Assembly: GCF_000186865.1 (NCBI RefSeq)
Contig: NW_008705601.1
Location: forward strand, 41,167-91,812
Direction of reading: 5' to 3'
Origin: Aureococcus anophagefferens
Taxonomy: Eukaryota; Sar; Pelagophyceae; Pelagomonadales; Pelagomonadaceae
Length of the DNA: 50,646 nucleotides
Part shown: piece after piece, positions 22,840 to 50,646 of the stretch
Layout of the letters: the number at the start of each line of letters is the position of its first letter
Numbering within the stretch: the stretch's first letter is position 1
Translations under genes and position numbers: made by a program
Notes under the pieces: model-generated
Seen by the model: only the letters and a program-made list of their open reading frames with translations
What the model was told of the DNA's origin: nothing
Databases searched by the model: none

Positions 22840-22889
22840 NNNNNNNNNNNNNNNNNNNNNNNNNNNNNNNNNNNNNNNNNNNNNNNNNN
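22840..22889. other. Assembly gap (50 N)
   Basis: Exactly 50 ambiguous bases. GC is about 70% to the left and far lower to the right, so the join may be a scaffolding estimate or a misjoin. Confidence 0.99.
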
Positions 22890-30850: not shown

Positions 30851-30853
30851 TCT

Positions 30854-31830
30854 GTGTTCGCAATCGTGGGAACCGGTGTTTCGGGACTCGTCGTGGCGCG
30901 TAGGATCGTCTCCGAAGGGCACCAGTGCGTCCTTCTTGAAAAGGCGAATGCATGTGGGGGGGTGTGGCACGCACAAGCCAACATATCGTCGAGAGTGAAC
31001 ACGTCAGAAGCGGCCTATCGCATAGTGGAGCGCGGAGGCGTCCTCAATTTTGACCACACTCCGACTTTCTAGATCATGAATGATCTGTCGCTCCTGACCT
31101 CAGCATATCTTGCATAACGGATCAAGCTTCAGACGACCGCGATCGGGATTTTTTCATGCCGGAAGACATCACACGCAATTTTCTACACGACTCGTCACAA
31201 ACCCGCAACCATTGAAGCAACGACAGTCCTGGCCGGTGTGAACCGTCGCTTAGGAGCTACGCGGAAACTCTCATTTCCAGGCGAAAATGACTATCATGGA
31301 CATGTATACTACGGGGTCGGCGGCGATTCTTCACGTGTTCACTTCCCTTGGTTCGTGATCCTCATCGTCGGTGCGGGCGCGTTTGCAACGGAAAATGCGC
31401 GTGCCACTGTCGAGCGCGGTGCAGAACGAGTCTCGGTCCTTTAGCGACGGCGCGGTACTGTGAGTCCTTTGATCGTGGACTATCTCAACTTTGCCCGTCC
31501 GTACGATGAAGGATATGGTCACGCAAAGTCGGGTTCGCAAGTAATCTTCTCAGCCTGGGGCGCTGCCTTCAAGCTTCACGTAGGGGAAAAGCCAGAGTGC
31601 TGGCGTTGAGGGCGGATTTCGCCAGTCGGGCACACGATATCAGTGTCGGACATTTGGTTCGTCGCCCATCACTATGGTCTTCTTACGACCGTCCTCGGCG
31701 AGATTTCTACCCTGCGTCAAAAGCACGCTACGACGGACTGCGGAGTCGTGATTTGATGCGACATAATAGTCAAGTGCACCGGATACTGGAAAAACGAACT
31801 CGTGAGGTGATTGCTTGGAAGTAACACGAT
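30854..31830 (+). pseudogene. Flavin-containing monooxygenase domain (PKS relic)
   Basis: Broken plus-strand frames together give an FMO. 'FAIVGTGVSGLVVARRIVSEGHQCVLLEK' carries the FAD GxGxxG fold; 'GGVWH' matches the FMO G-G-x-W; 'PFPGENDYHGHVYY'-like 'LSFPGENDYHGHVYYG' resembles the FxGxxxHxxxY/F motif; 'ILIVGAGAFATENARATVERGAERVSVL' is the NADPH GxGxxA fold; and 'DIIVKCTGYWKNE' is the C-terminal ATGY-type motif. Stops (e.g. after 'SVL' at 31442) and frame changes make it non-functional. FMO/Baeyer-Villiger domains occur in some modular PKSs, where they oxidise the growing chain. It is first in the collinear relic, and about 500 bp of helical, unassigned remnant separate it from the first ACP. 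Confidence 0.7.
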
Positions 31831-32401
31831 CTACTCTAACAACTTAGTGCGAAGTAACTTGATTTATTAAGCCGAACAAATTCTAGACGACGCTGGGGGA
31901 TTTCAAACGCCATTTGGTTCAAGTTACTTGGAGTCTGTTGCTTTTCAAGTACTCATGTTTATGTGTTGTGGGTAGGTGGGCTAGGGAGTGCATTTCGACC
32001 TCATTGATGCGCCCCTCTCTCGCATGTCTGTCGAACTGGCGCGCACGCTTGAAGCTAACGTCGCGCTTGCCACTGTAGCGAAGAAACGCGTGATTCAGCG
32101 CAGTTTGAACTACCATCGTTGATTTTTGCCAGATCAATTTGTATTGGAAAATGCGCGTGAGTGGTGAGAGCTGGCGACTCTTTGCGAGGCGCGAGTGAAT
32201 CTGGTTGGTCACGTCAAGCCTGCGTACCCGTTTACGAGACTTTGCGAGAAAATGGCCGGCGAGTGGCTCGATAAAGACCTTCCTATTGGGAATGTTACAA
32301 GCCTCGGCGAAGAACATATAGTGACAAGACTGAGCCGATGGTTAGTATAGGCATCGCAGCCACCGAGCTCCATCGAGAGCGTCGCAGGGCCGGGAGGTGT
32401 G

Positions 32402-33065
32402 GATGACGTCATCGAAGGTCTCACAACACTTGCGTTTCAGCTTCTTGGCACCACGATCTCGAAGGAGGAACCCCTCATGTCTGCTGGGCTGGACTCTTTA
32501 GCAGGAACTCAATTTGTACAAGCCGCCGCTGGGCACTTCTGCTCAGAGATTCCGTCTACGCTGATCTTTGACCACCCAACGCTTTGGGCTGTAGCCGATT
32601 TCTTTTGATTGACTCGCGCACAGTACTCTTATGACAACATAATCGATTTTCTTCTATAGCTTGGTTTTACGCTTCTGGGAACAACGCTCTCAGTGTAAGA
32701 GCCACTTTACGACTCGGGGTTGGATTCCCTCCTTGCGCTACAGTTTTCTGCGTCGGTGTCAGACGAATTTGCCGTGGATGTACCTACGACTCTTATCTTC
32801 GACCACCCGACCCTCAGTTCTGTTTCTCACCACTTGGTTTCGGCGACGAGCGGGTACGACGATGATGGCGTTACATCGCTTCTTTGAAACGCGGTCCTGG
32901 AATTTGTCGGAACTCTCATTTGCAGGGACTCTCCTCTGATGGAAGCAGGGCTAGATTCACTGGCTGCCAGTTTGTTTGCCTAGTGACTTTCAACAGCCTT
33001 CAGCACGGAACTTAATTCTACTCTAATATTCGACTATCCAACTCTATACGCCATTTCAAATTAGT
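32402..33065 (+). pseudogene. Three tandem acyl carrier proteins (PKS relic)
   Basis: Three ACP remnants in a row: ~32402-32608 ('EPLMSAGLDSLAGTQF', 'IPSTLIFDHPTL'), ~32655-32845 ('EPLYDSGLDSLLALQF', 'VPTTLIFDHPTLSS') and ~32880-33065 ('SPLMEAGLDSLAAS', 'LNSTLIFDYPTLYA'). Each keeps the GLDSL serine that takes the phosphopantetheine arm (first one at 32495-32497). The second and third have stops and frame changes. Tandem ACPs raise flux or serve beta-branching in trans-AT synthases. They lie between the FMO and the first KS. Confidence 0.75.
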
Positions 33066-33189
33066 TGCGGAGCGTGCCTGCCTCTAGAGCCACCCACTTC
33101 GCATGTGGATCACGAGCACTACAAGTAATAGTAGTAACAAGGGCCGCTTTTTAGTTACCAAAACTTCGTGCGTTCAGTGGAATGCGGGA

Positions 33190-34500
33190 GTTTCTGCTTA
33201 ATTGACTCAGTACTCCATCTCGGGTGCCCATCTTGCGGTGGGACTCTCACCAGTCTCAACATCCACCTGGAGCAACATACGGTGCATTCTTGCTGCCGGT
33301 GCTAGCCGACGGCGGCGGGGCATTTTAAATGTCGCGGAGCTTTGCTTCAACGCAAGATCCGTAGAATATACTGTTACTCGAAGGCGCAGCGCAGTGTCTC
33401 GTGGGTTCTACAGATACCGCCGTATACGTCGCCGTATTGACGCAGCCAGTCGAAGGGGTCGTTACCTCAAATAGCTGATACTCGCCCACTCATGCAAATG
33501 TATCGTCCGGGCTAATCTCCTACACACTCGGACTGACTGGAGCCTGCACCACGGTGGATACAGCCTGCTCGACGCAGCTTGTAGCCATTCACCTCGCTCG
33601 GGCGGAGATTATGCTGAGCACATCTCCGCAGGCCTTTGCGCAAGGGGTCGGACTTCTAGGGCCTGCCTGGAGTTCTGGATTTGCCAGCCTTGGGATGCTC
33701 TCAGCACTAGGGCGCTGCCACAGTTTCGATCGTCAAGGGGACGGTTACGCCTGAGCTGACGGAGCCGCTTGTATTTTGCTCGCTGAGTCACAACGAGCGT
33801 GCGAGTCCCCAGAGTTTTCCGTGGCCGCTACCGCTGTGCAGAGTGATGGTCCGAGTGCTAGCCTCTCTGCTCCTAACGGCTCTGCTCAACGAAGATTAAT
33901 TATGCTCGTGCAACCGCGTCAGATTGTTGGTGAATCAGCATACCCAGTAGAATGTCATGGAACTGGCACCTTGCTTGGCGATCCAATCGAGATTGGGGCA
34001 TTAGCTTCTGCCCTCTGTTCCTCTCAAGCACACGAAGTGTCTTGTTCGTCATTCAAGTCCAACATGGGCCATCTGGAAGCGACTGCCTCCGGAGGGGGCT
34101 TATTATGCGCATTTTCGTCGGCTTTAGAATCTAATAACACGCCATCAAACGCCCAACTACGCATTTTGAATCCGCACCTAATTTCCCTGCTTGGAGCTTC
34201 CGTGTTACACATTCCGGCACAGGACATTTTCGTGATTAAGGGTGCCACGCCAGCCCCAGTGCAGTGTCGTTTAAGCTCGTTTGGCGCGAGTGGCACGATA
34301 GCTCACGCATTGCTTGGCTATGGCGACTACTTTTTCATGACAGAGCCCGCCTTTGCTGTGCAATTGGAGTTCTTCCACCCAGATGCCAGGCCTTCTTCAA
34401 TCTTTCGTCGTCAAGAGGTCTCCAGTTGTATCCAGGAGACGCTTCGCTTATGTTTGACAGAGGTTGCGCAAGAAATTCTTGGTGAAAAGCAAAGTGTCAT
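33190..34500 (+). pseudogene. Ketosynthase 1 (PKS relic)
   Basis: Condensation domain of a modular PKS. The N-terminal third (33190-33480) is frame-broken. The rest reads 'ISYTLGLTGACTTVDTACSTQLVAIHL' with the active-site Cys at 33566-33568, 'GRCHSFDRQGDGYA' then a TGA where the family has Arg (33754), 'SDGPSASLSAPNGSAQRRLI', 'VECHGTGTLLGDP' with His at 33956-33958 (Ala of EAHGTGT is Cys), and 'SSFKSNMGHLEATA' with Lys/His at about 34070. 'LSSFGASGTIAH' ends the domain. Triad codons are kept although the frame is not. Confidence 0.8.
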
Positions 34501-34527
34501 GCAGGGCACACCAACAACCGCATCTTA

Positions 34528-34640
34528 GGCGTTCGTTGATCACACAGTCCTCGGGAGCGTTCTACTTCCAGGTGTGGGCTTCCAGGAAATAGCCTTGGCG
34601 TGTACACGCGCCAGACAAGGATAATCTCGTCTCTAGAATG
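34528..34640 (+). pseudogene. Dehydratase fragment 1 (PKS relic)
   Basis: 'AFVDHTVLGSVLLPGVGFQEIALA' (frame at 34531) is the HxxxGxxxxP active-site motif of a PKS dehydratase, directly after KS1. The remainder of the DH is not recognisable. Confidence 0.6.
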
Positions 34641-35735
34641 TTGTGATCGCTCGGCCTTGTGTGCTCTCGTGAAGTACAACGGAACTCGAGGGTCACGTCG
34701 TGCAATACACGCTATTTGGTGCAGGCTCTTACCAGATTGCTAGTTGATCTTACTCTCGTAAAGATTTCGTGACTCACGTCGGCGGTACTAACTCGATATC
34801 GTCACGACGAGAAGCAGTGAGACGACCATAGTCGCTTGCTTCTTCGCGCACATTCACGCCGCTAATCAACAAACGGTCGGCGGTGCACGTTCCAGCAGCA
34901 CCTTGGTAAGCCTCTTGCTTGCTTCTCGGTGATAGTCACCCAGATGGGTAGAGATCGAGGAATGTCTCGCGATTCTCGTCGTGCATTCCCATTCATCAAA
35001 ACTACTCGCGTGTAGAAGAAATTGTTGAGTGATATAGCGTGAGAAACGTTCGACTGTGTTTTGTCACCTTTTATCCCAATTCCGTAAAAAAGAAGGGATG
35101 GTGACATTCTACAGGAGAGATCGTGCTGGAACGCTGCATAAGCGTGGCGTTGGGATATGATGACTGCTCGGCCTGTGCTATGCATGGGGCTCACCACACA
35201 CACCACAAGAGATAACAGTATATTTTGTATGATAGTTCTCCTGTCCAGATATTCTGGTGTTGTATGATTTCGTGCATGTCTTTATAGCCGCCACTCTGTT
35301 TGTCCTTTATCACTTCTCGTCCCGCCTGCTCGGATACCACAGTGCGTGCATTAAGTCTCTAGGTTGGGCTGACAAAATTCGGGGCTTGCGTACGTTGCTA
35401 GTGATTGATACCTCGTTGGGGAACTATGCGATGATTTCGTGCACAACAAGCCTCGGAGTTACAACCGCCGCGAGATCTTGTTGAGAGCAACAGAAAGATG
35501 TCTTGTGATGATAATGTTTGATTCAGAGTAGACTTGGAGTCGACGGCATTTTGCTTTTGGGTCGATGGTTGTTCATGTGTCGAAAAATTCATGCAAGAGC
35601 GCTGAGGAAGCAGCTTCACGCAAATGTGAGCCACTTGCATAAGAAGAAGAATTCAACCCGCAGCGCGAACTGCGACCGATCTCAGCATCCCCTTGCTTAC
35701 GCAAACGAACGTTTCCTCTTCCTATACCGAGCATC
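34641..35735 (+). pseudogene. Eroded inter-domain region, possible KR (PKS relic)
   Basis: About 1.1 kb with only scraps of homology. At ~35,285-35,400 'LFVLYHFSSRLLGYHSACIKSLGWADK' resembles the KR segment with the catalytic Ser and downstream Tyr (V-L-F-S-S-x-x-x-L-L-G), but the alignment is weak and the nucleotide-binding fold is not seen. Confidence 0.3.
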
Positions 35736-35739
35736 TTTA

Positions 35740-36245
35740 GATTCAAGTTCTCGATTTGTTGAGGATGGTTTCTCGGGTTGTTGGAACTCGGGTTGTTGAT
35801 GCAAATGCGCCTTTGATGGCATCTGGTCTGGATTCGCTGACGGCGACGGAATTTCACAGCAGTTTGAGCGTCCAGTTTGGCACTAGTTACCCATCGACCC
35901 TATTGTTTGACTATCCGACAGTAAATGCTCTTGCCGGGGCTCTTCAGCCCACTTGTGAATTGGCATGTGGCGAGGAGGATCGCCGTGTGCAAGCGCCGTG
36001 AGCACCTGTTCGAGATGAATCGCCTTGCTCGGGGACGTCCACGAACGCCATTTTTTTGCTTTAGAGCATTACTCTTGAGCTTCACGGAACCGCCGTGTCC
36101 CTCGACGTCCCCTTAATGTCAGTGGGACTAGATTCTTTGAGCGCGACGGAGTTGGCTCGTACGATTGGTGAGCGTTTCCACACAGCCGTGCCGTCAACTC
36201 TCTTGTTTGACTATCCCACCCTAAGTTCTCTTGTCTCATTCGCAG
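35740..36245 (+). pseudogene. Two tandem acyl carrier proteins (PKS relic)
   Basis: ACP at ~35750-35945 ('APLMASGLDSLTATEFHSSL', 'YPSTLLFDYPTVNALA') and at ~36070-36245 ('VPLMSVGLDSLSATELARTI', 'VPSTLLFDYPTLSSLV'). Both keep the modifiable Ser. Linker stops separate them; both lie in the same frame set as the following KS. Confidence 0.75.
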
Positions 36246-36299
36246 TAGAGTCGGGGGTGGCAGAAATGGAGGCGATACCCGACGACCCTGGACAGATTG

Positions 36300-37540
36300 T
36301 GGATCTACGTGCACGTGCAGCCGGTGAACATCCGATGTTGAAACCGGCTAGGGATTCTATCTTCGTATCAGGAGAATATGCGACGCGGTTTCCATGTCGC
36401 TCTCGTGCTGGCCTTAGGAGACTCGTGATTTGAGGTTCTGATAGGAAGACGATCCTGCCTATCGTTCGCTGGCATCACCTCGCTAGTTTCAGTGCTTACA
36501 ATTCCGTCAAGTACGGTGCCTACATCGATGCGTTGGTGGCCGTGGATCCCGGAGCCGTAAGTATCTCTAGAATCGAGTCGTGCGAGATGAACCCGCAGAT
36601 GATGCTCATTTTAGAGGTGAGCTCTGCGGCCATCCGTGCCGAGCGGAGAGTAAACTGTTCTGCGCAACTATCAGGCTAGTACATTGGATTTTTCCTGGGT
36701 GCAAACGCCGCATTGCCGAGCGATTAGTTTGAACCTGGGAGGCCAAGGCAAAGCTCGGTGTACTCCGGCACCTCCTCCTCCCTCGCAGTCGCTTCTGGGC
36801 GACTGTCGTACGTGTTAGGTCTCACGGGTCCAAATTTACCCATCGACACAGCGTGCTCGGCATCTCTAGTTTCGTTACACGTAGCGGGGTTGTTTTTAAT
36901 CGACGATGTCATGTCGCACGCTGCAGTAGCGGGGAGCTTGCTTCTTCTTTCTAAGGTGTCGATTGCCTTTGCCCTCGGAGGGATGATATCCCCGCGCGGT
37001 CGCTCTCACACATTTGATGTTCGCGCAGATGGGTTTTGCCGAGGGGAGGGATTCGGAGCCTTTCTCGTGACTACAGAGGATTCGTTTACTTCAGTTCGCA
37101 GCTCGAGTGTGCAACAAGACGGTCCCAGCGCTAGCTTGACGGCACCCAGCGGGTCATCCCAAAAACGACTGATCGAACGAGTGCAAGCTGGTCGCGCCTA
37201 GTCATCGGCACTCGAGGCGCACGGCACAGGCACGGCGCTCGGAGATCCTATCGAGGCGCGCGCATTCTAGAAAGATTTTTTCTTCCCAAGCGAGTTTGGC
37301 AGGTGGGTGCTGCTATCGGGGGGCTATGCCTGAACTCGCACGCGGTACAATGCACCTCGTTGAAATCGAACATGGGTCATTTGGAGGCATCTGCAGCCGC
37401 CGCGGGTCTCGTGTCTCTTCTTCTAGTGCCGCTTGCTACGTCGTTAGTTGCCAAGAACGCTCAACTGAACCAGTTTGTCCGCATGGTGCACCTTCTCGTG
37501 AGGCTCTGAACATAGGTTGAACACGCACCTGTCTTCGATG
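36300..37540 (+). pseudogene. Ketosynthase 2 (PKS relic)
   Basis: 'YGAYIDALVAVDPGAVSISRIES' and 'MNPQMMLILEVSSAAI' open the domain. The central part reads 'YSGTSSSLAVASGRLSYVLGLTGPNLPIDTACSASLVSLHV' with Cys at 36854-36856, 'RGRSHTFDVRADGFCRGEGFGAF', 'VQQDGPSASLTAPSGSSQKRLI', 'LEAHGTGTALGDPIEA' with His at 37220-37222, and 'SLKSNMGHLEASAA' with His at 37378-37380. A small deletion follows the Cys region, and TAG codons sit at about 36679, 36730, 37199 and 37268. 'VGRLSSFGFSGTIAHGAF' (37,612) is the C-terminal end. Confidence 0.8.
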
Positions 37541-37689
37541 ATGTCGTCATGATTTAAAATGCCTACTGATCTGCTGGCATAAGGTAAAAGTCAACAACTA
37601 CCCGTGGGTCGGCTGAGCTCGTTCGGGTTCAGCGGGACCATCGCACATGGGGCCTTTGCGACTTCGGCGTCCTCGAAGTTGGTCCTAGA

Positions 37690-39130: not shown

Positions 39131-39139
39131 TAAACAGGT

Positions 39140-39680
39140 CGTTGCGTCCTCGACGAGCTTATTGGCACTATGGCCCAGCTCAGTGACACCAGCGTCTTTC
39201 CCAACGCACCGCACATATCGGCCGGGCTCGACTCCATCGAGTCCACATAGTACTTGACGCGATTCAACGAGCGTCTCCGCACTGAACTGCCGTCGACGCT
39301 GTTGTTCGACCACCCGTTGCTACGTTCCATCGCCGGTTCCTTCCCGATCGAAAGCGGAGATTCGAGTGCAGGAGAGGTAAACTCCTGAAGCGTGATACGT
39401 CGAGAGGTCGCGCCGGAATCGTGAACAGTCTCCCGGGGCTCTTCTTCCGTGGCTACAACCATCTGCGCATCGCTTATCGATGTGTTCGGCACAGCTATTG
39501 CCACGAACTTGCCACTGATGGCTGCCGGACTGGACTCAGTAGCGGCGACGGAGTTCGCGAATTCTCTGGCGGAATGATTCACGGTTGAATTGCCCTAGAC
39601 ACTTCTCTTTGACCATCCGACAATCGAGTCAGTAGCTGGGCTGATTTTAGAGGCAGTCGATGGAGAGGGAGTGTAACTCG
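39140..39680 (+). pseudogene. Two tandem acyl carrier proteins (PKS relic)
   Basis: ACP at ~39140-39350 ('APHISAGLDSIEST', TAG, then 'LPSTLLFDHPLL') and at ~39460-39655 ('LPLMAAGLDSVAATEFANSL', 'ELP' TAG 'TLLFDHPTIESVAG'). In the second, TAG replaces the Ser of P-S-T-L-L-F-D; in the first, TAG sits where relatives have Glu. Both carrier Ser codons remain. Confidence 0.75.
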
Positions 39681-39689
39681 TCACTGATG

Positions 39690-41060
39690 CCTCCCAGACC
39701 ATGATGCGGCATCAGGCTGAAGCAGCACCCCAAGAGGCACAGAGTGTTGCAGTGTCATTGTCGGGCTCGTTCTCTTTCATTTTGTCAGGCCTAACTGCGA
39801 CAAAGACTGGACTAGAGCACCTCGTAACCCTTGGTTCGGTAACTAACTCTGGTGTGCCTGTCTCGCGCTGGTAGAGCGACGCCTCTTATGTATCAGCAGC
39901 GTACGGGTCTTTTGCCATTTTTATGTCAGATGCGACTGCGTTCGGAATCTCGAGAATGGAATCGCAAGGCATGGATCCCCAGATGATGGTGGTTCTCGAA
40001 AAAAGCACTTCCACGCTTTGTGCGTCGAGCTACCGCGCATCACTAATGAATATGCCAGTTGGCTTCTTCCTTGGCGTTGGTGGCGCTTTCTCAGGCGCAA
40101 GTGCTGACAAGGGCGCTGCTGATACGCAAGCACCTTCGGTATACTCGGGGACCTCCGACGCTCTCTCCGTAGCGTCTGGCCGGGTGTCTTTTACGCTTGG
40201 GCTTACAGGTCCCTGCTTGACGCTGGACACGGCGTGCTCGTCGTCGCTCGTCGCCTTGCATTTGGCGGCGTCAGCTCTAAAGCGGATGGAATGTCCCAAA
40301 GCAGCGGCAACGGGCGTCGGTATGCTGACGCAGGCAGTGTCGAAGGCTTTCTCGGCGGCAGGCATGCTCTCCGTTCTTGGACGCTGCCACACGTTCGATC
40401 GCCGAGGGGACGGATACTGCCGTGGCGAAGGTTGCGGAGCTTTGTTACTGGCCTTTGGAGTCTATGCCAAAGTTGCTGTCCTTGGCACGGCGGTGCAGTA
40501 GGACGGCCCGAGCGCGAGCTTGACCGCGCCTAGCGGGTTGTCGCAAAGGCGACTAATTTAGACTGTGCGCAACTGCGACACAACGCAGCAGGCACTTGAG
40601 GCGCACGGCACGGGCACGGCGCTCGGGGACCCGATCGAAGTAGTCTCTGCTACAGTTGCGTGCTTGGACCATCTGTCTTAGGTTGGGGCGGCTATGGGAG
40701 CCTTGTGTGTGAACTCGCAATCGGTACAATGCGCATCTTCGAAGTCGAATATGGGTCACTTGGAGCCATCGGCAGGTGCCGCGGGGTTGGCTACTCTTGT
40801 GTTTGTGCCCCTGAGTATATGCTTGGTCGCTATGAGCGCGCAGCTTAGGCTGTCTGACGCCCCTTCGAAGCGAAACACCCAACCTTGAAGGTTTTAGGAT
40901 GAACACCCACCTATCTTCGATCGTGTCGACATCCTTTAAGATGCCGACTGAGTTGTTAATCGAAGGCCTTCAATAATCACCGGTAGGTCGTGTGAGCTCG
41001 TTTGGTTTCAGCGGGACCATCGCGCACGGGGCGTTTGTGGCCGTAATGCGATAAGGATCC
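39690..41060 (+). pseudogene. Ketosynthase 3 (PKS relic)
   Basis: The best preserved KS. 'YGSFAIFMSDATAFGISRME', 'GMDPQMMVVLE', 'VGFFLGVGGAFSG', 'YSGTSDALSVASGRVSFTLGLTGPC', 'LDTACSSSLVALHLAA' (Cys 40235-40237), 'GRCHTFDRRGDGYCRGEGCGALL', then 'VQ' TAG 'DGPSASLTAPSGLSQRRLI', 'LEAHGTGTALGDPIE' (His 40604-40606), 'SSKSNMGHLEPSAGAAGLAT' (His 40757-40759) and 'GRVSSFGFSGTIAHGAF' (about 40,987). TAGs at 40499, 40558 and 40679 fall in conserved positions (Gln, Glu/Gln, Gln). Confidence 0.85.
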
Positions 41061-41790
41061 CTGGGCACAGCCAAGTCACTATCCCTCTATCGTGCTCAGT
41101 GACCAACCGTCTCTGGCGAGCGGCGAGCAAGTTGATCGTGTACACAACAGGCCTCTGAGATTGCCCGAAGCACAATAACGGCTCGCTGGTCGCGGGTCAA
41201 CATATGCGCATATACGTCCCTTTTGTCGCTGGCAAGCAGTGGTCTGCGTGCATCTCTTGGTGATGTTCGCTTTAATCACTGAATCATGAATCATGCTCAC
41301 AACAGCGTGCTTGTTTGTCGCTTCGACTCCGCGGTGTACACTTGGGCTGCTCTTACGCAGTCCTGACAGCCTCGAGTACTTTCGTGCGGTGTGGTGCTAC
41401 AGGATCGGGCGTGCGCTGAGATTTCGAAGAATATTTCCCGACCAGCAGTCTCCTAGACTCATATCATTTGCGGTCAAGCGTAGGGTATGCTGTTGTTTGA
41501 TAATTTTGGCAAGGCAGTGCTACAACTTTCAACGTCTTGAGGGTCGTAGGCACAGTCCACTGCATTTTCCCTATTATTGTCGGCAACGGCCCTCGATGAA
41601 GGTGTGATGAGCAACCTAGAAATGCTCGCTATCGACGTGTATTCGCACCAGAGCGCTGACACGCAGATGAAGCACCTATATCGCACGATGGTCTCAGATC
41701 ACGCCGTGCGGTTCCTCGTGGCAGACGCGGCGTCCTGGGATAACGCGGCGGTGGCAAGCGGGATTCACATGCAACGATGCAATGCTTCTT
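41061..41790 (+). pseudogene. Post-KS linker remnant
   Basis: Begins with the linker 'tcta tcgtgctcagtgacca' that recurs after KS2 and KS4; here the dehydratase motif that follows in the other two copies is not seen. Some helical sequence at 41,577-41,760 leads into the HMGS domain. Confidence 0.4.
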
Positions 41791-41799
41791 TGGCTTCAA

Positions 41800-42875
41800 T
41801 CGTAGCTGCGAGCGCGATCATCGAGCGCGAGGCTGTTGCTATTGCCGCTCTGTCTTACTATGCTCCAAATCTAGCCTTGGACGCTTCCAGTGCGGAGGCA
41901 TTCCATGTCAGTCCCGGCAGATACACGATCGGGCGCGGGCAGGAGAACATCACTTTCGTCAGCGATGATGAAGACACTGTCTCGCTAGCGTTGTCAAGTT
42001 TAAGTAGACTACTTTGATCGTGTGAGCTGGCCTTTATTGAAGTTGGGCGCCTTGAGGTTGGCACAGAAAGCGCAGTGGACCGCGGCAAGTCAACCAAGTC
42101 TTTCTTGATGTCATTATTCGAAGCTGATGGCCACCACAGTGTTGAAGGGCTCGACACTTTCAATGCGTGTTACGGTGGGACGAATGCATTATTCAGTACC
42201 ACTAGCTGGTTTCAGAGCAAAGCATGCAACGACACCTACGGTGTAGTGGTCTGTTCCGACCCGGCGGTCCACCCAGATCCTGCTCATATCTCTGGTATTG
42301 GGGCTTCATCAATATCCCTGTTGGTAGCGTCGCAATCATCATTGCTACTTCGGCGAGAGCGCACGACCTTCATCAAGCATTCTTGGGACTTCTATCGGCC
42401 TGTCGGATGGCACACGAACGACGCAATCGCGGACGTGAACATCGCAACTGGTCAATACGAAGAGGCCATGATGTGGTGCTAGGGCTGATTTAGTGAAACA
42501 GTAGGTCGGCGCGATTTATTGACAACATTCAACCTAGTCGTGTACCACAACAACGCTCCTTATCATTCAAAGAGGAACCTGCGACTCATGTGCGAAGTGA
42601 TGTGCGGTAAACGCACCAAGGCTCAACACGAGAACTCGTTCCAAGAGCATGCTAAGGCTGGTATTGCGATAAGTGCCCAAAACGCTACCACCTACACATG
42701 CCCGGTCTACGCGAGTCTGCTGTCGTTGGCTCTCACTATTGGCTCTGGCCTGACTAATCAACGCGTCCTATGCATGGCGTATGGATCTGGTTGTGCCGCT
42801 AGTATGTATGGACTGGACGCGATTGCTGCGCCCGTATACGCCTCCGATGTGCTCGCCAGCCTGCGTGATCGGTAG
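41800..42875 (+). pseudogene. HMG-CoA synthase-like domain (beta-branching, PKS relic)
   Basis: 'VAIAALSYYAPNLALDASSAEAFHVSPGRYTIG' (over about 33 codons) and 'DDEDTVSLALSSLSRLL' match the N-terminus of HMG-CoA synthase. After a TGA: 'FIEVGRLEVGTESAVDRGKSTKSF', 'EGLDTFNACYGGTNALFSTTSWF' with the catalytic Cys codon at 42168-42170, 'YGVVVCSDPAV', 'HSWDFYRPVG', 'NLVVYHNNAPYHSKRNLRLM' (the His region) and 'QHENSFQEHAKAG...TTYTCPVYASLLSLAL' with 'YGSGCAASMYGL' at the end. Overall order and spacing are those of the PksG/CurD/MupH type, which add acetyl-ACP to a beta-keto chain. Stops at 42017 and 42481 break it. It sits between KS3 and two crotonase domains, in the cassette order. Confidence 0.8.
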
Positions 42876-43560
42876 CAAACACCAATAGAGGACGCCCTAC
42901 TACTCGTCAGCGCTTTTGAGATGACACACTGAAGATTCGAATACGAGCCATCACATCACGAGAGCTGATAGGATGCGGCCTTTTATCTCAAAACTGTCAG
43001 CGCAATGGGCGTTCGCACTTATGAAGCTCATTCTAGAGTTACGTTGATCAAGGTAGACTCGCTGGATTCTTCTCGTTTTGTCCGCGTCGAGCTAGCCTAG
43101 AGCTCAGTGACTGACTCGTTGCTCGAGGAGCTCACCCCAGTCCTAGATCCCGGACAAATCATTGTTTTCGCATTTGCAACTGCTGCTCAGAGTGGTGTTG
43201 AAAGCGCCATGGCAGAGAGAACCCTTCTCAATGAGATCACGCGGCAAAGCCGCTGTCTTCCCACCGTCTTCTCGAGCCGCGGGCATACCACAGGGGGGAA
43301 AATGCTGATTGTTGCAGTTGCAGATCTCGCGATTGCAACGTCTCAGTCTACGTTTGGGCTATCTATCACGCTTCATCGACAACTGGGCATTGCCCCCGTG
43401 GCACTCCGCAGGCGGGTCAGATTCCGCCTCATTCGGCGATGGTTGTTCCTTCAAGAGGACGTTGACGCGAGCACGGCTCAGAGGAGCGGGTTGATTGAGA
43501 TCATTATCTCAAAAGGTGAGGAACGTCACTATCTCTGCTTTCTGGATCAAATTTAAGTAT
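42876..43560 (+). pseudogene. Enoyl-CoA hydratase-like domain 1 (ECH1 type)
   Basis: Crotonase fold: 'RVTLIKVDSLDSSRF' (strand 1), 'VTDSLLEELTPVLDP', 'IIVFAFATAAQSGVE', 'SRCLPTVFSSRGHTTGGKMLIVAVADLAIATSQSTFGL' (over about 38 codons), then 'FLQEDVDASTAQRSGLIEI'. The P-T-x-x-x-x-x-G-x-x-x-G-G-x-x-x-x-x-x-x-D pattern is typical. By position after HMGS this would be ECH1, the dehydratase of the branching cassette. A TAG at about 43,099 and loss of part of the oxyanion loop make it inactive. Confidence 0.65.
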
Positions 43561-44640: not shown

Positions 44641-44949
44641 GACTTGGCATCACTAGTGTTGATACTGTTCTTCGTCAGATGTAGCCAAATTCCCATCAAC
44701 ACGTGATGTGCGTCGCGCGCAGTTGACAAGAAACCGCTTGCGGTATTTGGACTTTGGCGCACGTTTTCTGCCATTGTCAATTGCCAACGACGCTCGTTCT
44801 TGTATCTGACACTGCTTGGGATATCGGGCCACTAGTAACGGCATCAGATCTCCTGGTTGTGGAGCATAACAGGCGCAATGTGTATCAGCAGATTCCCCTC
44901 ATATTCGGCACAGGTGCGCAAATCGCCATTTCCACATCCCTCATGTTAG

Positions 44950-45640
44950 GTTCTACAGCTTCCGTCCACCTGAAGTCATATCTCCACTCCAGATCACCAG
45001 CCGAAGCTGTCACAGTCACCACTGCACAAGGTCCGAGTGTAGAAGTAGCACGCGACTTACGCATGGTACGCCTTGAAGTTTCTACTGCCTCAACGTCGGT
45101 CATTGAACTGAATGACGCAGTCCACTTCAATGCCCAAAGCGACTCCCTAATTGCGGACCTGACCGTATGCATCACTTCACTTTGCAGGATAGCCTGGTAT
45201 GCAGAGAGCTGATCCATGCTATTTCAGGGCGCCGGTGCTTATTTTTGCACCGGCGGAAACTTCGCGCAGATGACGCAAGGCAGCCTCTAGCTAAAGAAAG
45301 AAACTTCTGTCTCTTTGCTCTGGAGAACTTCGCACGTCACCAGAGACATTTGTCGACTCTGTGTGCCGAAATTTGGGGCAGTTCATGGAAAGCTTGTGGG
45401 AGGGGGTGTTGCGTTTGCGCTTGCCACAGATTGGCGCGTCTGTACCACTGGGGCGACATTCAATTACGGCAACTTGCCGCGCGGAGTGAATCCCCTTTTC
45501 ATGTTCAGCTGAGCGCTGCCATTGACGGTGGGGTACCCCACTGGTTTTCAAATCTATGTGGAAGATATAGTTCTCTCTGGTAATCAGGCAGATGCATGTG
45601 GCATTGTAGACTAGATCACAGCCAGCAAGGCTGAAGCATA
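44950..45640 (+). pseudogene. Enoyl-CoA hydratase-like domain 2 (ECH2 type)
   Basis: 'MVRLEVSTASTSVIELNDAVHFNAQSDSL' (strand 1 to the first oxyanion segment, over 29 codons), 'LFQGAGAYFCTGGNFAQMTQG' (second oxyanion loop; near 45,215-45,285), then in another frame 'RLCVPKFGAVHGKLVGGGVAFALATDWRVC' and 'FNYGNLPRGVNPLFMFS', then 'DIVLSGNQADACGIVD'. The H-G-x-x-x-G-G-G and N-Y-G-x-x-P-R-G segments match ECH2-type decarboxylases/hydratases of PKS branching cassettes (PksI/CurE class). A stop at about 45,211, one frame change and TGA at 45,510 break it. Confidence 0.7.
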
Positions 45641-45879
45641 GCACTCGACAGCTGGTCCGGCCCTGTTCAGCGCCCACTCAATTTTCTGACCCACCTCAGT
45701 AGCTTCAGATTGTGTGCTCGATGCTGCGCAAGCAGCGCTAGAGGTCGCATGCTTCGCTGAGTCTTTCATGGATCGAATGATTTCCTCTGAGAAATATCCA
45801 GAGGCAATAAGGAAGGGAAGCGTGCTCCAGCGAGCATCTTCAATCTAGGTTGCACAGCCACAATTCCACAATTCCGATG

Positions 45880-46375
45880 TATCACGAAAAGTGAGTTGAT
45901 GCGTCGCGAAGGTGCTCGGCACTCGAGTAGCCGGAGACACGGCGTTGATGGCTGCGGGAATTGACTCTCTGGGTGCCACGGAGCTGTAACGGGCACTGAG
46001 CGAAGAGTTCAGTGCCGAGCTCCCAGCCACGCTCCTCTTCGACCACCCTGCGATTGCGGGAATTGCATCTTTGGTGACCCAAGCATTTCAGGTGCCATCA
46101 CCGCCCGTAGGTGAAAGCGATTGTTACTAGGCGGACACTCACCAAGTGCAAGCAATAGTGACAAATTGTGTCGCAGCGGTGCTCGGGACTCAAGTATCTC
46201 GAGATGCGGCGTTAATGGCTGCGGGAATCGACTCTCTGGGTGCCACGGAGCTGTAACGAGCCATGAGCGACGAGTTCTGCGCTGAGCTCCCAGCCACTCT
46301 CCTCTTCGACCATCCTTCGATTGGGGGTCTAACTTCAGTTTTGGCGTATTCGAGTTCAGGCCATGTTAGAGCACT
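45880..46375 (+). pseudogene. Two tandem acyl carrier proteins, sharing a TAA
   Basis: Near-duplicate ACPs: ~45890-46085 ('VLGTRVAGDTALMAAGIDSLGATEL' TAA 'RALSEEF...LPATLLFDHPAI', given in pieces) and ~46160-46360 ('VLGTQVSRDAALMAAGIDSLGATEL' TAA 'RAMSDEF'). Both have the same TAA directly after ATEL (45987 and 46254). Doublet ACPs directly after HMGS/ECH are a hallmark of beta-branching modules in bacteria. Confidence 0.8.
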
Positions 46376-46449
46376 AGAAATGGCCACGGTGAACCAGTCA
46401 TACGAGACGGTCACCGTTAATGTGGTAAAAGAGAGCTAAATTGACCACA

Positions 46450-47525
46450 AATATATTCGTTCAGATGAGCACTTGATGAAAGTGATTTGTGTTAACAGCT
46501 ACGGTGGGCCCATATATTGGATGGATGTAGCACGGCCGGTCTTACCACATATAGCAGATGACATTGTCCAAACTATGTCAAAATATCTGAGAGACGACGA
46601 ACATGTCATTGTGGCAGGTATGGTTATCCTACAGGTCGCGGCTGTTGGTTTGTCCTTGGCAGACAATTTAAGCCTGCATGGCAAATACTAGGTCAAGGCG
46701 CCCCTACCTGTCACCCCTGGGACAGAAGCTGCTGGAATCATATCTGCGACCGCCACCTTGGTTTCCAAGCTGCGAGTTCATGATCCGGCTGGCGTGATCC
46801 TTCCTTGGACTACAGGCACCTGCGCAGAGGAGATTTTGCTTCACGAACGTCAGTGTGTGAAACTACAAAGAGATGCCAGTCGACAAGATTTCATTGACTT
46901 TGTAGCTCTCGGTAGTAACTATCAGACCGCTTACTTTGCTCTGGTTCATCGAGCACCCATTTCAGACTGGCTCGCCCAGACCCTACTCATATTGGGAGCA
47001 GCCGGGGGTGCCGGTGTTGCCGCGCTCGACATTGGAAAGGTCTTAGGCGCCATTATTCTGGCTTGTGCTAGTACGCAGAGTAAACGTGATGTTTGCTATT
47101 CTCGTGGTGCAGACATTGCGATAGACTATTCTCGCAGGGGCTGGCAGTGAGACGTGATGGAGTACACATCGCATGAGGGTGTCAATTGTGTGTTCGATCC
47201 CGTGGGAGGTGACTACATTTATGCGTGTGTCTGATGCATCGGGGTCGGAGGCTCTTTATTGACCATAGGGTATGCATCAGGCACTATTCCTACGATCTCG
47301 TTGGAGCACTTGCTCCAGCGTAATATTGCGATTGTAGGAGTGTGGACATATGCAGTCCACTATCCTAGTGACAACGAACATGCGGCGGCAGAGGTTGTGA
47401 GACTGTGGCAGGCTGGTCTGCTTGTCCCAGCGGTGGACACAGTATTGCCCATGGACTAGTTTCACGCGGGTCTATCTAAGATTCTCAGCCGTGAAGCGAA
47501 AGGGAAAGTCGTGCTAATTATCACT
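46450..47525 (+). pseudogene. MDR-type enoyl reductase (PKS relic)
   Basis: Zinc-independent quinone-oxidoreductase-like ER: 'HVIVAGMVILQVAAVGLSLAD', 'PVTPGTEAAGIISATA', 'LLILGAAGGAGVAALDIGKVLGA' (NADPH GxxGGxG fold), 'GADIAIDYS', 'GVNCVFDPVGGDY', 'GSLLTIGYASGTIP', 'LLQRNIAIVGVW', 'GKVVLIIT'. The order and motifs are complete from 46,470 to 47,520, but TAG at 46,689, TGA at 47,148 and 47,232 and TAG at 47,457 break it. ER domains reduce the enoyl intermediate; in trans-AT and branching systems, MDR reductases also act after ECH2 as trans-ER. Confidence 0.75.
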
Positions 47526-47689
47526 TCCTCTAACTGGGCAGAGAAGTCATCTCCCAGAACAGATCCTCCTGTACCGTTGGGAACAAAAACGCAAGAAATT
47601 AGCCCGACAAGGGCAATGCAAGAAATTTCCCCCCCTGTGTGAACGATCACACTCCACGTCAGCTGATCGACGCTTTCCAAGCCGCACAA

Positions 47690-48900
47690 TGTTTACCTTA
47701 GTGCATACCAGATTCGACTTGGTGGTGGCATTGCAACCTTATTTTCGATACGTCAGCTTTTGTTTTGAGCCCTAGCGACCCCATCATACATTCCCTCATG
47801 AAGATGGGCCATGACTTCTCGAGGCACGGCAGCAAGCTACGGATCCTTCCTTCTTGGTGATCTCCGTTTGGAGTATCAGACGTTCGGCATTTCCCCACAT
47901 TAAGCATGAAGTATGGACCGTCATTTTGTCATGCTCCTCGAAGGAGCAGATTCTGGGCTGAAATCATGCAAGGTGCCGTGTGGTCGTGAATGAGACATCG
48001 GTGTGTTCGTAGGAATCCTTGGGTGACCTGTTGAACAGGCGGCTGCTGGTGATCCCGCCGTAGCAGGAGCCCCGTAAATATCTTTCGCCAGTGGCCAAAT
48101 ATCATTTATTCTCGGCCTCGTGGGCCCTTGTCTTTCCCTTGATACAGCGTGCTCTTCGCAACTCGTTGCTACTCACCTTGCATCTGCCGCCTTGATACTT
48201 CGCGAGTGCCCGGATGCGATTGCTTCCGGCGTTGGGCTGCTTGGGCCTATTTTTACGGGCGCCTTTGCTGCTCAGGGCATGCTGTCTGGGCGGGGTTGAT
48301 GTCACACCTTTGATGTCAGGGGAGACGGGTATTGTCGCGGGGAGGGCTCCGTGTCCATCTTGTTGTCTGTGGATGAAGTTGCTCGATTTGAGGTCGACGC
48401 GACATGAGTGCAAAACGATGGACCGAGCGCAAGTTTGACTGCTCCTAATGGATCTGCGCAGCGGCGGCTTATTGTCGCTGTTCAAAGCTGACTTCACACG
48501 CAAAACAAGTGCAACCCCGCCAGCCTAGAGGCGCATGGCACGGGAACTGCGCTTGGAGATCCTGTTGAGGTTGGCGCAGTCACGGGCGCGCTTTGTAAGT
48601 TGGGAATTGAGATCTCTTGCACGTCGCTGAAAGCAAACATGGGACATCTCGAGCCCGTCGCGGGCGGTGCCGGGGCGGCGGCCCTGCTTTGTTTGACCCT
48701 GTCATTTCGAAGTGTTGCTGCAAACACCCAGGGACAGAATCTGAATCCGCACGTCGTCAATGTTGTCTGAAATACGCCCTTCCACATCCCACTCTGCGAT
48801 TAAGCAGCTGTATCGTGGGCAGCCCTGGGTTGACTGAGTTCATTCGGGGCAACGGGGACAATTGCTCATGGGGGTTTCGTTTCTAAGACTTCAAGAAGTG
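47690..48900 (+). pseudogene. Ketosynthase 4 (PKS relic)
   Basis: The N-terminus is shared among frames: 'AASYGSFLLGDLRLEYQTFGISP' (about 47,825-47,895), then 'MLLEGADSGLKSCKVPC', 'DIGVFVGILG'. The core reads '[33 protein letters not shown]' (Cys 48150-48152), 'MLSGRG' TGA 'CHTFDVRGDGYCRGEG', 'VQNDGPSASLTAPNGSAQRRLI', 'LEAHGTGTALGDPVE' (His 48534-48536), 'TSLKANMGHLEPVAGGAGAAA' (His 48645-48647) and 'FRSVAANTQGQNLNPHVVNVV'. It differs from KS2/KS3 and is closest to KS1 in the segment after the Cys (VGLLGP). Confidence 0.8.
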
Positions 48901-48949
48901 ATGTGGCTTCGGCGACTCTGGTGAGATAAGAAGTGTTCCTGGGGGCAAC

Positions 48950-49450
48950 TACGCGGCCATCATTCTATTGTGCTCAATGACCAGCCGTCTCTGGCGAGTG
49001 GCAAGCAAAACGATGGATTGCTCAACAGGGCTCTGGGATTTCCCAAAGCGCGGACGCGGAGTGCATGCAAGGCTGACTGCTATCCACGACGCAAGCCGAT
49101 CTCGCGGATCATGTAGTTGGAGAAAGTATCCTACTTCCAGGTATTGGCTACGTCGACCTTGCCTTGCGGTCTCTCAAGCTGCGAAAATCGTTGGCTGGTG
49201 TCCAATTTTTACGGCCATGCTTACTACCAGAGCCTGGCCTAGGCTGATCCATCTTGAGATGTAGGAGCCAAATTTCTGGAGCGTTTGCGATTGATAGCGC
49301 AATGACAGAAGACAACTTGACGTTTTTCAATCACTGCGTGGGAAATTATCCCGAAGGAAATGACGACCATAGTGCAAGAAAGACCGACCATCTTGCCCGA
49401 GCACTTCACGACCCCCATTTCACCGACACTTCATGGCAAGCAAGTGAAAA
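48950..49450 (+). pseudogene. Dehydratase 3 (PKS relic)
   Basis: 'LADHVVGESILLPGIGYVDLAL' keeps the HxxxGxxxxP motif (about 49,095-49,165), then 'SLAGVQFLRPCLLPEPGLG', TGA, 'CRSQISGAFAIDSAMTEDNLTFFNHCVGNYP'. Highly similar in DNA to 37,690-38,110, including the TGA after GLG. Confidence 0.65.
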
Positions 49451-50540
49451 TTTCTGAGGATCACAATGACCCACCACATCCGAAAAGTGGCGCTGTCCAT
49501 TGACGTTTCCAATAGAAAGCGTGACAATCAAGCAAGTTGTGAGTCACGCGGTTGGAGATTGCCAGTCAGGAGCGTCTGTCGGGAGCCAAGCCACGACGGA
49601 TTGCGCATCGCGCGTCCTGAAATTTTTGAGGACCAGGTATAATCTCACCGCGGGCTCGGGCTCGGGTGGAGTGCCAACGCGCCGCTGTGTCTCGTTAGGA
49701 AGCTCCAAGGTCTCTCCTCTTGCAATTTTTCACGATCGAACAAGCGGGGATGAGTAGGGGCGGCGAGAAATATGGAATGCAACAACGCGGTCATCTTTGA
49801 GCGAGATCCTTGCGCTAAAGGCGAGGTGGTAGATGTCACGGGTACACGGAAGTCTCGAGATGGGAAACGTGAGAGGATCCCCTCCGTACATGCAGGCTTC
49901 AAATCATTGAGCGTTGTGAATGCGCGCATCCTGAAAGCCGCAGGGTCGAGAGCTTGTTCGAGCCTTAGTGACACGTCTGGCAAGCAGCCGTGACGTCGCT
50001 GTTGGTGGATCTGTCACGTGATGCAGATTTGGCTCTGATTGGGTGGCGTTGATGAGGAAAAAGGGGGGACACGCCTCATCCCGAATATGCGTATCTTTCA
50101 CCGAACAGCATTGTGTGGTTGCTGACCAAGTGGCTTCTATTTCACCTGAGATGATTGCTCTCACGCGAGAGTGCTTTGGGACTGGTAGGATTGCCGAGCG
50201 TGACGCGCAGCGACCAGGAGTCTGAAACCTAGCTAGGAAGAAATCAGGAAGAGGATGCCGGTCCTGGATACTCGCACGTGACTTCGCAACTGTCGACCCT
50301 GCTGACAGGGGTGTGCGTCATCTCGTCTCTCGCGAACATGGCTCGCATTCCGAAATAGGTCACGGGGGACTGTTGCGTATCGAAAACTTCGCCTCTCGTC
50401 CTATCTTGTACACCTGCCCGATTGCATTGGCGCGTGCATCTCTGACTTGACTAGATAACCGAGCACTATCCAAGGCGCCATCAGTTTGTCCCCCACCACG
50501 ACAACCGAGGCCCGTTCAAGCGCGTTCTTCCGTCCGATGC
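49451..50540. pseudogene. Eroded region, possible ketoreductase
   Basis: About 1.1 kb. 'YNLTAGSGSGGVPTRR' (49,638) and 'SVHAGFKSLSVVNARILKAAG' (49,883) are weakly KR-like (T-G-G-x-G-G-L-G and V-H-A-A-G segments), but the match is poor. Nothing else is recognisable. Confidence 0.25.
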
Positions 50541-50544
50541 CAAA

Positions 50545-50646
50545 GCCTCCTCGACGATCTCGTTGGCAGCGTGACCCAGCTCACCGGCACCGCCACTTCA
50601 CTCGACGTACCGCTCATGTCGGCCGGGATCGACTCCGTCGGGGCGA
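50545..50646 (+). pseudogene. Acyl carrier protein, cut by window edge
   Basis: 'LLDDLVGSVTQLTGTATSLD' and 'VPLMSAGIDSVGA' run to the last base. The carrier Ser codon is present and this fragment is open. It is closest to the ACP at 39,140 ('LDELIGTMAQLSDTSV'). The synthase locus therefore continues beyond the window. Confidence 0.75.

What the first reader, a model, noticed from the sequence alone, without database searches (positions are those of the whole stretch)
30854..50646. Relic of a giant eukaryotic PKS with an in-line beta-branching cassette
Seen directly: FMO, 3 ACP, KS, DH, (KR?), 2 ACP, KS, DH, 2 ACP, KS, HMGS-like, ECH, ECH, 2 ACP, MDR reductase, KS, DH, ACP, all on the plus strand and in an order that makes biosynthetic sense. 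HMGS + ECH1 + ECH2 + doublet ACPs is the beta-branching cassette known from bacterial trans-AT and some cyanobacterial PKSs. Finding it inside one collinear eukaryotic locus is, to my knowledge, undescribed. This copy is dead; its importance is as a signpost to a live paralogue.
Basis: partly seen in the sequence, partly recalled or inferred. Interest (0 to 1): 0.93.

Follow-up and report, generated by a model that had tools for sequence, protein, structure and literature searches.

The report
Algal polyketide factory with readable stops
A brown-tide alga carries giant polyketide-making genes with a built-in branch-adding cassette, and at conserved positions the stop codons that made them look dead sit where glutamine and arginine belong, so the genes are likely still read through.

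Summary
At 30.8-50.6 kb lie, on one strand, an FMO, ten ACP motifs, four KS, HMGS, two ECH and an MDR reductase; KR and a clear DH were not confirmed. No AT match lies on this contig. A 100% match over 190 aa points to Aureococcus anophagefferens or a very near relative.

The cassette is in line: a GC-rich, stop-free paralogue (C12) has HMGS-ECH-ACP-ER-KS in one open frame, and database proteins fuse KS-HMGS, DH-HMGS and HMGS-ECH. Its HMGS groups with bacterial ECH-ECH-HMGS fusions, not with the alga's mevalonate enzyme, and lies far from PksG/CurD.

"Dead" is not well supported. In 8 low-GC HMGS copies all 26 stops at conserved columns fall on Arg (TGA) or Gln (TAG); copies sharing stops diverged with dN/dS 0.18-0.27; active sites are intact; the window's frame changes fit short introns. 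21 of 32 KS relatives end just before a conserved Gln.

Against: 149 stops over the whole span, no suppressor tRNA found, two ordinary genes end in TAG, no transcript seen.

The parts
30821..32075 (+). Flavin monooxygenase-like domain (GxGxSG motif at 30869)
   Evidence: Pfam NAD_binding_8 2.6e-8, FMO-like 1.3e-5; tblastn 30620-32605 to paralogue C11 at 38% identity in one frame
32351..33010 (+). Three acyl carrier proteins (GLDS at 32486, 32717, 32948)
   Evidence: Pfam PP-binding 6.6e-8 and 4.4e-12 for the first two; motif for the third
33191..34414 (+). Ketosynthase 1 (Cys 33557, His 33950, His 34055)
   Evidence: Pfam; motifs; tblastn
34535..34612 (+). Possible dehydratase start, weak
   Evidence: only an overlap with a weak PKS_DH_N match of C11; no Pfam hit in the window
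35741..36430 (+). ACP doublet (35825, 36125)
   Evidence: Pfam 4.6e-13 and 8.9e-13
36455..37530 (+). Ketosynthase 2 (Cys 36845, His 37214, His 37363)
   Evidence: Pfam; motifs; tblastn
37256..37302 (+). Predicted 47-nt intron (GC..AG) of ketosynthase 2, between GDPIE and VGAA
   Evidence: same place holds inserts ending in AG in L013, L015 and L018
37473..37515 (+). Predicted 43-nt intron (GT..AG) of ketosynthase 2, near NAQL..LNTHL
39170..39700 (+). ACP doublet (39224, 39527)
   Evidence: motifs; tblastn
39782..41105 (+). Ketosynthase 3 (Cys 40226, His 40598, His 40742); TAG at 40499 falls on a Gln conserved in its relatives
   Evidence: Pfam 1e-39
40640..40681 (+). Predicted 42-nt intron (GT..AG) of ketosynthase 3, between GDPIE and VGAA; its last codon is an in-frame TAG
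40852..40897 (+). Predicted 46-nt intron (GT..AG) of ketosynthase 3
41550..43100 (+). HMG-CoA synthase-like domain (Glu 42045, Cys 42162, His 42540)
   Evidence: Pfam HMG_CoA_synt_N 1.5e-27, HMG_CoA_synt_C 5.4e-9
43101..43553 (+). First enoyl-CoA hydratase-like domain
   Evidence: Pfam ECH_1 1.6e-5, under cut-off
45087..45640 (+). Second enoyl-CoA hydratase-like domain (NYGNLPRG at 45462)
   Evidence: genome scan 1.8e-12 (C41:86256-86792); Pfam 1.9e-4 on one piece; tblastn to C11 44970-46085
45900..46415 (+). ACP doublet (45957, 46224)
   Evidence: motifs; tblastn
46440..47639 (+). Zinc-type alcohol dehydrogenase-like (MDR) enoyl reductase
   Evidence: weak Pfam ADH_N/ADH_zinc_N; clear at the corresponding place in C12
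47727..48887 (+). Ketosynthase 4 (Cys 48141, His 48528, His 48630)
   Evidence: Pfam; motifs
50590..50646 (+). ACP (50625), cut by the window end
   Evidence: motif

Best explanation
The window holds part of an acyltransferase-less modular polyketide synthase array of the brown-tide alga Aureococcus anophagefferens (or a very near relative) with an in-line HMGS-ECH-ECH cassette, and its in-frame TGA and TAG codons are likely read as arginine and glutamine instead of marking a dead gene. Shown: domain order, intact active sites, a GC-rich stop-free paralogue with the order HMGS-ECH-ACP-ER-KS (one ECH detected there), purifying selection on copies that share stops, and stops at conserved Arg/Gln codons. 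Inferred: a discrete AT loads malonyl units; KS3 hands a beta-ketoacyl chain to an ACP; HMGS adds an acetyl-derived unit to the beta-ketone; ECH1 would dehydrate and ECH2 would decarboxylate, leaving a beta-methyl branch on the ACP doublet; the MDR reductase would saturate it before KS4. How the stops become sense is untested; my preferred guess is decoding confined to these transcripts (dedicated suppressor tRNAs, or U-to-C editing at stop codons), which could gate the synthase on a condition.
For: Organism: 100% over 190 aa to AURANDRAFT_5451; further AURANDRAFT fragments match window pieces at 79-92%. AT 9 matches against 125 KS, none on C41. In line: C12; fused proteins P0003, P0007, P0023, P0024. 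Stops: 26 of 26 conserved-column stops at Arg/Gln in 8 low-GC HMGS copies, 7 of 7 columns; 50 of 53 at a looser cut-off. At Arg columns TGA 20, TGG 1, TGC 1, TGT 0. KS: TGA at 4 of 56 Arg cells, TAG/TAA at 5 of 27 Gln cells, 1 stop in 1,020 other conserved cells. dN/dS 0.18-0.27 for the 21 pairs of 7 copies sharing 5-12 stops; 0.19 between shared stops and 0.48 (95% 0.31-0.68) downstream. Each of 11 HMGS-ECH1 copies in one frame over 1.2-1.5 kb. Window frame from 30.6 to 49.3 kb fits one reading frame with four predicted introns. Database relatives: 21 of 32 KS proteins and 28 of 92 HMGS fragments end just before a Gln or Arg column.
Against: Two of two ordinary genes checked end in TAG, so TAG is a real stop in this genome. 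No tRNA with anticodon UCA, CUA or UUA among 36 read, and none of 9 pattern candidates is a stop-reading tRNA, though the inventory is incomplete. Stop load is heavy: 88 in 5,096 codons of the 8 HMGS copies and 149 (68 TGA, 52 TAG, 29 TAA) in 6,166 codons of the whole window span, against 267 and 205 in the shifted frames. At Arg columns there are also 4 TAG and 2 TAA. Copy L016 carries 21 stops at mixed residues and looks decayed; C11 copies have TGA at Tyr and Thr columns. A looser alignment to distant paralogues put window stops opposite many residues, Ala most often. No transcript or peptide was seen.
Confidence: 0.65

Rival explanations
1. Ordinary dead arrays: the copies worked until recently and are now decaying, largely by C-to-T changes at methylated sites, which turn CGA into TGA and CAG into TAG; amplification and gene conversion spread the same stops.
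For: Most stops at Arg/Gln are one C-to-T step from a sense codon. Low-GC arrays (53%) beside 70-80% GC genes, with TG/CA raised. 149 stops over the whole window span. L016 has stops at mixed residues and C11 stops are partly at non-Arg/Gln columns. TAG outnumbers TAA at Gln columns. Conserved-column stops in L016 are also rich in Arg/Gln, 5 of 7.
Against: dN/dS 0.10-0.19 across and between shared stops in HMGS; all 13 low-GC HMGS copies carry stops, so no stop-free donor of that clade was found. CGC, CGG, CGT to TGN in codon frame 3 of 40 columns against CGA to TGA 4 of 12; TGG to stop 0 of 7. TGA also stands opposite AGA or AGG codons, which needs a transversion (columns 294, 323, 516, 634). 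Stops at the same conserved residues in database relatives.
Confidence: 0.28
2. U-to-C RNA editing restores CGA, CAG and CAA in the mRNA, as known in hornwort and fern organelles (recalled).
For: One change explains all three pairs TGA-Arg, TAG-Gln, TAA-Gln. It would be confined to some transcripts, which fits ordinary genes ending in TAG.
Against: Other codons should then also carry T for C: conserved His columns have TAY in 2 of 96 cells, Pro columns TCN in 1 of 105, Arg columns TGC/TGG in 2. The listing showed it only for land-plant organelles.
Confidence: 0.29
3. Dedicated suppressor tRNAs read UAG as Gln and UGA as Arg, switched on when the synthase is needed, as some gut phages do with UAG (abstract starts of PMC9523058 and PMC10879173).
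For: Codon-specific tolerance of TGA and TAG but not of TGY/TGG/TAY. TAG more used than TAA at Gln columns.
Against: No such tRNA found (incomplete). UGA as Arg is not a code I know of (recalled). Ordinary TAG-ended genes would be read through when it is on.
Confidence: 0.31
4. The HMGS and ECH pieces are ordinary mevalonate and beta-oxidation genes that lie next to PKS fragments by chance.
For: The HMGS sequence is closer to plant and human mevalonate HMGS (1e-49 to 1e-52) than to PksG or CurD (5e-5).
Against: The tree separates it from the alga's own mevalonate gene; HMGS with ECH recurs in the low-GC copies, C11 and C12; single proteins join KS, DH or ECH to it.
Confidence: 0.03

Closest known systems
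Bacterial beta-branching (HMGS) cassettes of trans-AT and cyanobacterial PKS: PksG/bacillaene, CurD-F/curacin
   Same: HMGS, two ECH, tandem ACPs, and an ER after ECH2 as in curacin (recalled); no integrated AT
   Different: Here the domains are in line, and the HMGS matches PksG and CurD only at 5e-5; no donor ACP or decarboxylating KS was identified
Bacterial ECH-ECH-HMGS fusion proteins (L094 Myxococcales, L095 Rhodospirillales, L097 Candidatus Thiosymbion with ACP; L098 Symploca HMGS-condensation)
   Same: Nearest HMGS relatives in the tree, joined at 98/96 support together with a Blastocystis protein; fused ECH pair
   Different: ECH pair lies before HMGS, short proteins, bacterial; in the alga HMGS comes first and sits inside a modular PKS
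Algal trans-AT multimodular PKS (PMC4661987: abstract, sections 5-6 and passages seen)
   Same: AT-less multimodular type I PKS; that paper already noted 56 KS and same-strand KS/ACP clusters on scaffolds 40 and 46 of A. anophagefferens and called re-annotation less straightforward
   Different: Its main text has 0 hits for HMG, branching, enoyl-CoA hydratase or pseudogene; in-frame stops and short introns offer a reason why re-annotation failed
Chrysophaeum taylorii PKS (PMC10366177: abstract, results part 1 of 2 and discussion seen)
   Same: Pelagophyte, AT-less modular PKS, FAD oxidoreductase domains
   Different: No HMGS or ECH domain among those its figure legend lists
Nuclear stop-codon reassignment (ciliates, Amoebophrya, Blastocrithidia; listing and abstract starts) and U-to-C editing in land-plant organelles (listing)
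   Same: Stops standing for amino acids
   Different: Here seen in one gene family, with UGA at Arg, in a genome where two ordinary genes end in TAG

Membership tests
HMGS beta-branching cassette | HMGS with Glu-Cys-His triad | tested here: met
   motifs at 42045, 42162, 42540
HMGS beta-branching cassette | two ECH domains (dehydratase and decarboxylase) | tested here: met
   (weak per piece); ECH pair in C11 tile and C4; only one ECH detected in C12; which reaction each does was not tested
HMGS beta-branching cassette | tandem acceptor ACPs near the cassette | tested here: met
   45957 and 46224
HMGS beta-branching cassette | donor ACP and decarboxylating KS lacking Cys | tested here: not met
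   all 4 KS in the window keep Cys; elsewhere in the genome not searched for
HMGS beta-branching cassette | HMGS of the PksG/CurD lineage | tested here: not met
   the tree has no PksG/CurD rows
trans-AT polyketide synthase | modules without AT, discrete AT elsewhere | tested here: met
   no AT match on C41; 9 AT matches in the genome, four in frames of 379-574 aa; which AT serves is unknown
Mevalonate HMG-CoA synthase | groups with the cell's own mevalonate enzyme | tested here: not met
Pseudogene | premature in-frame stops | tested here: met
Pseudogene | loss of purifying selection after the shared stops | tested here: not met
   dN/dS 0.19 between and 0.48 (0.31-0.68) downstream
Pseudogene | frameshifts and broken active sites | tested here: not met
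   HMGS-ECH1 in one frame in 11 of 11 copies; the three frame changes of the window fit predicted introns; active sites intact
Nuclear code reassignment | stops at conserved codons of one amino acid each | tested here: met
   with 4 TAG and 2 TAA at Arg columns as exceptions
Nuclear code reassignment | cognate tRNAs | tested here: inconclusive
   none among 36 anticodons; no tRNA-Gln, His, Asp, Cys or Tyr was in the list either, so it is incomplete
Nuclear code reassignment | codon not used as terminator elsewhere | tested here: not met
   2 of 2 ordinary genes end in TAG; TGA not tested
U-to-C RNA editing | T for C at non-stop codons too | tested here: not met
U-to-C RNA editing | C in cDNA where the genome has T | not testable with these tools
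   no transcript data

The most novel reading that the evidence does not exclude
A nuclear gene family of a marine alga has learned to hide in plain sight: its giant polyketide synthases are written with UAG for glutamine and UGA for arginine (an assignment not known to me), while ordinary genes of the same nucleus stop at UAG, so that the whole chemical factory is made only when the cell switches on a way to read or edit those codons.
Probability: 0.4. Interest if true: 0.97.

Novelty: new variant of a known kind. Interest (0 to 1): 0.86.

Why it matters
[quoted passage not shown] The HMGS clade shared with bacterial ECH-ECH-HMGS fusions is a lineage of likely branching enzyme outside the PksG/CurD kind. 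If the stops are sense, pseudogene calls made from premature stops are wrong for a large part of this alga's secondary metabolism, and a transcript-restricted decoding in a nucleus becomes directly testable. The alga forms harmful brown tides.

Tried and rejected
Considered and set aside: (1) bacterial or mis-joined DNA: AURANDRAFT gene fragments of another assembly match both C11 and the low-GC arrays; the window has one 50-N gap at 22840, none in the array. (2) CpG-driven decay alone: CG observed/expected is 1.02 in the array against about 1.4-1.5 in GC-rich genes, so CG has dropped but is not depleted, and the frame test disagrees. (3) Selenocysteine for TGA: the opposite residue is Arg, not Cys. 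(4) Whole-genome recoding: two ordinary genes end in TAG. (5) A suppressor tRNA: of 14 places, 8 had a stop-reading triplet; all 8 were fetched and none is a tRNA; the one such place was tRNA-Lys. The tRNA-Trp control was found. (6) Viral origin: one scan of viral contigs with P0040 gave no relative. (7) C11 as the live paralogue: similar FMO-ACP-KS order, but its HMGS part has in-frame stops, so C12 is the better stop-free example. (8) The shared stops as parts of introns: the codons around them align with database proteins on both sides; but the in-frame TAG at 40679 is the end of a predicted intron, so some stops of the window are intronic. Weak: (distant and some antisense queries). Structure prediction and fold search were not run.


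Full report
What is there. The window is G000:C41:41167-91812 of a 49.05-Mb, 86-contig genome. A PKS HMGS piece from contig C11 matches AURANDRAFT_5451 of Aureococcus anophagefferens at 100% over 190 aa; window pieces match four further AURANDRAFT models at 79-92%, so the genome is that species or very near. From 30.8 kb on, one strand carries FMO, three ACP, KS, two ACP, KS, two ACP, KS, HMGS, ECH, ECH, two ACP, an MDR reductase, KS and an ACP. KR was not found and DH is only hinted at. KS matches go on to 134.9 kb of C41.

How it is built. The genome has 125 scored KS matches (131 candidates) and 9 AT matches, none of the latter on C41, so these modules lack AT. HMGS gives 19 Pfam matches: one mevalonate gene (C1), two in C11, one copy in C12 in two pieces, and 13 copies on C34, C37, C41, C45, C52 and C77 (one in two pieces), all 13 with in-frame stops. 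ECH matches lie beside them.

In line. C12:300-316 kb on the minus strand is GC-rich and stop-free: KS, then HMGS-N in another frame (presumed intron), then in one open frame of 4,648 codons (which includes an 841-N gap at 306.6 kb) HMGS-C, ECH, ACP, ADH-type ER and KS; KS, KR, ACP, KS, ACP and thioesterase follow in a further frame. Only one ECH was detected there. That is otherwise the order seen in the window. Database proteins join the domains in single chains: KS-HMGS (P0023, P0024), DH-HMGS (P0007) and HMGS-ECH (P0003).

Whose HMGS. P0005 matches plant and human HMGS at 1e-49 to 1e-52, PksG and CurD at 5e-5. A scan of the prokaryote collection gave five relatives out of 45 pattern matches: three are ECH-ECH-HMGS fusions, one with ACP, one is reductase-HMGS, one is HMGS-condensation. 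In a 29-row tree the algal PKS HMGS form a clade of 10 rows at 100/100 that joins these five and a Blastocystis protein at 98/96, apart from the alga's mevalonate gene. PksG and CurD were not in the tree and the root is arbitrary. Direction of transfer is open.

Is it dead? Eleven distinct HMGS-ECH1 copies were read: nine low-GC (window included) and two of C11. Each runs in one frame over 1.2-1.5 kb with 3 to 21 stops. In the eight low-GC copies other than L016, at columns at least 80% conserved, there are 26 stops in 2,193 cells: 20 TGA at Arg and 6 TAG at Gln, none in the 2,012 other cells, in 7 columns (Fisher 1e-29 by cells; 8e-6 by columns against a neutral nonsense expectation of 19%). 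At 60% it is 50 of 53, 12 of 14 columns. At Arg columns (70%) TGA stands 20 times, TGC once, TGG once, TGT never, but also TAG 4 and TAA 2 times; His columns have Tyr codons in 2 of 96 cells. So the tolerance is for stops more than for C-to-T in general. The ninth copy, L016, has 21 stops at mixed residues (conserved-column stops 5 of 7 at Arg/Gln) and looks decayed. Clear examples are TGA before FGY in seven low-GC copies (column 634) where relatives have THGRFGF, and NL-TGA-LMCE in four where the rest have NLRLMCE.

Selection. Seven copies that share 5 to 12 stops pairwise differ with dS 0.23-0.71 and dN/dS 0.18-0.27. By region dN/dS is 0.30 before the core, 0.10 and 0.16 in the HMGS core, 0.19 (0.11-0.32) between shared stop columns, and 0.48 (0.31-0.68) in ECH1 after them. 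In codon frame CGA/TGA is polymorphic in 4 of 12 columns, other CGN/TGN in 3 of 40, TGG/stop in 0 of 7, CAG/TAG in 5 of 16, CAA/TAA in 2 of 16. TGA also stands opposite AGA or AGG.

Ketosynthases. In 14 low-GC KS against 30 stop-free ones, at columns at least 70% conserved, TGA holds 4 of 56 Arg cells, TAG or TAA 5 of 27 Gln cells, and one TAA sits in 1,020 other cells. Most KS stops lie in less conserved columns, where no residue can be assigned. The frame changes of the window (37255/37300, 37503/37511, 40849/40875) fit predicted introns of 47, 43 and 46 nt; a fourth of 42 nt keeps the frame. With these, tblastn stretches from 30.6 to 49.3 kb follow one reading frame. That frame holds 149 stops in 6,166 codons (68 TGA, 52 TAG, 29 TAA), against 267 and 205 in the shifted frames; much of the span has no recognised domain, so some of it may be non-coding or decayed.

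Relatives. Of 32 KS proteins found with the KS3 piece, nearly all environmental, 21 end exactly before a conserved Gln, at three different columns; 3 could not be placed. Of 92 HMGS fragments, 28 end before a Gln (16) or Arg (12) column, several of the Arg columns weakly conserved, 12 at a likely exon end and one before a Trp. Only protein ends were seen, not their DNA.

Against it. Two ordinary genes, mevalonate HMGS and a discrete AT, end in TAG. Of 37 tRNA matches (63 of 277 candidates scored) 36 gave an anticodon, none for stops; the list lacks tRNA-Gln and others, so it is incomplete. All nine pattern candidates failed. C11 stops fall partly on Tyr and Thr columns; its 7,131-bp duplication has no gap in 241 differences and a synonymous share of 0.53 against 0.30 expected, which also hints at constraint. 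A loose comparison gave mixed residues.

What is in print. Shelest et al. (PMC4661987; abstract, sections 5-6, passages) saw the KS clusters and called re-annotation less straightforward. The listings of my searches for HMGS-bearing eukaryotic PKS, for Aureococcus or pelagophyte PKS and for stop recoding in this alga showed no paper on either point; listings are capped and subscription papers are missing. PMC10756674 (passages) reports higher transcript abundance of several polyketide-related genes under grazing.

Noticed in passing
G000:C11:1240474-1247604 and 1265513-1272643: A 7,131-bp duplication at 96.6% identity without a single gap; 7 in-frame stops shared, 4 differ.
   Followed up: partly
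L016 (G000:C52:80753-84259): A decayed-looking HMGS copy with 21 stops at mixed residues, useful as an internal control.
   Followed up: partly
G000:C34:223278-224063 and C52:90356-91141: AT domains with in-frame stops beside array KS, so some low-GC arrays may start with a built-in AT.
   Followed up: no
L094, L095, L097: Bacterial ECH-ECH-HMGS fusion proteins, one with a carrier protein: possibly a little-known compact branching cassette.
   Followed up: partly
P0026: A Blastocystis HMG-CoA synthase falls with the biosynthetic clade, not with the mevalonate row.
   Followed up: no
window 19564-21727: A GC-rich ORF with a repeated unit ending in ALRREMRGEAPAPFPFAD.
   Followed up: no
window 25643-26218: A small ORF that by eye resembles a DNA methyltransferase; not searched.
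   Followed up: no
window 22840-22889: A 50-N scaffold gap between the GC-rich part and the part that holds the array.
   Followed up: yes
L027 and L034 (C11, C4): FSH1-type serine hydrolase domains embedded in the PKS frames; role unknown.
   Followed up: no
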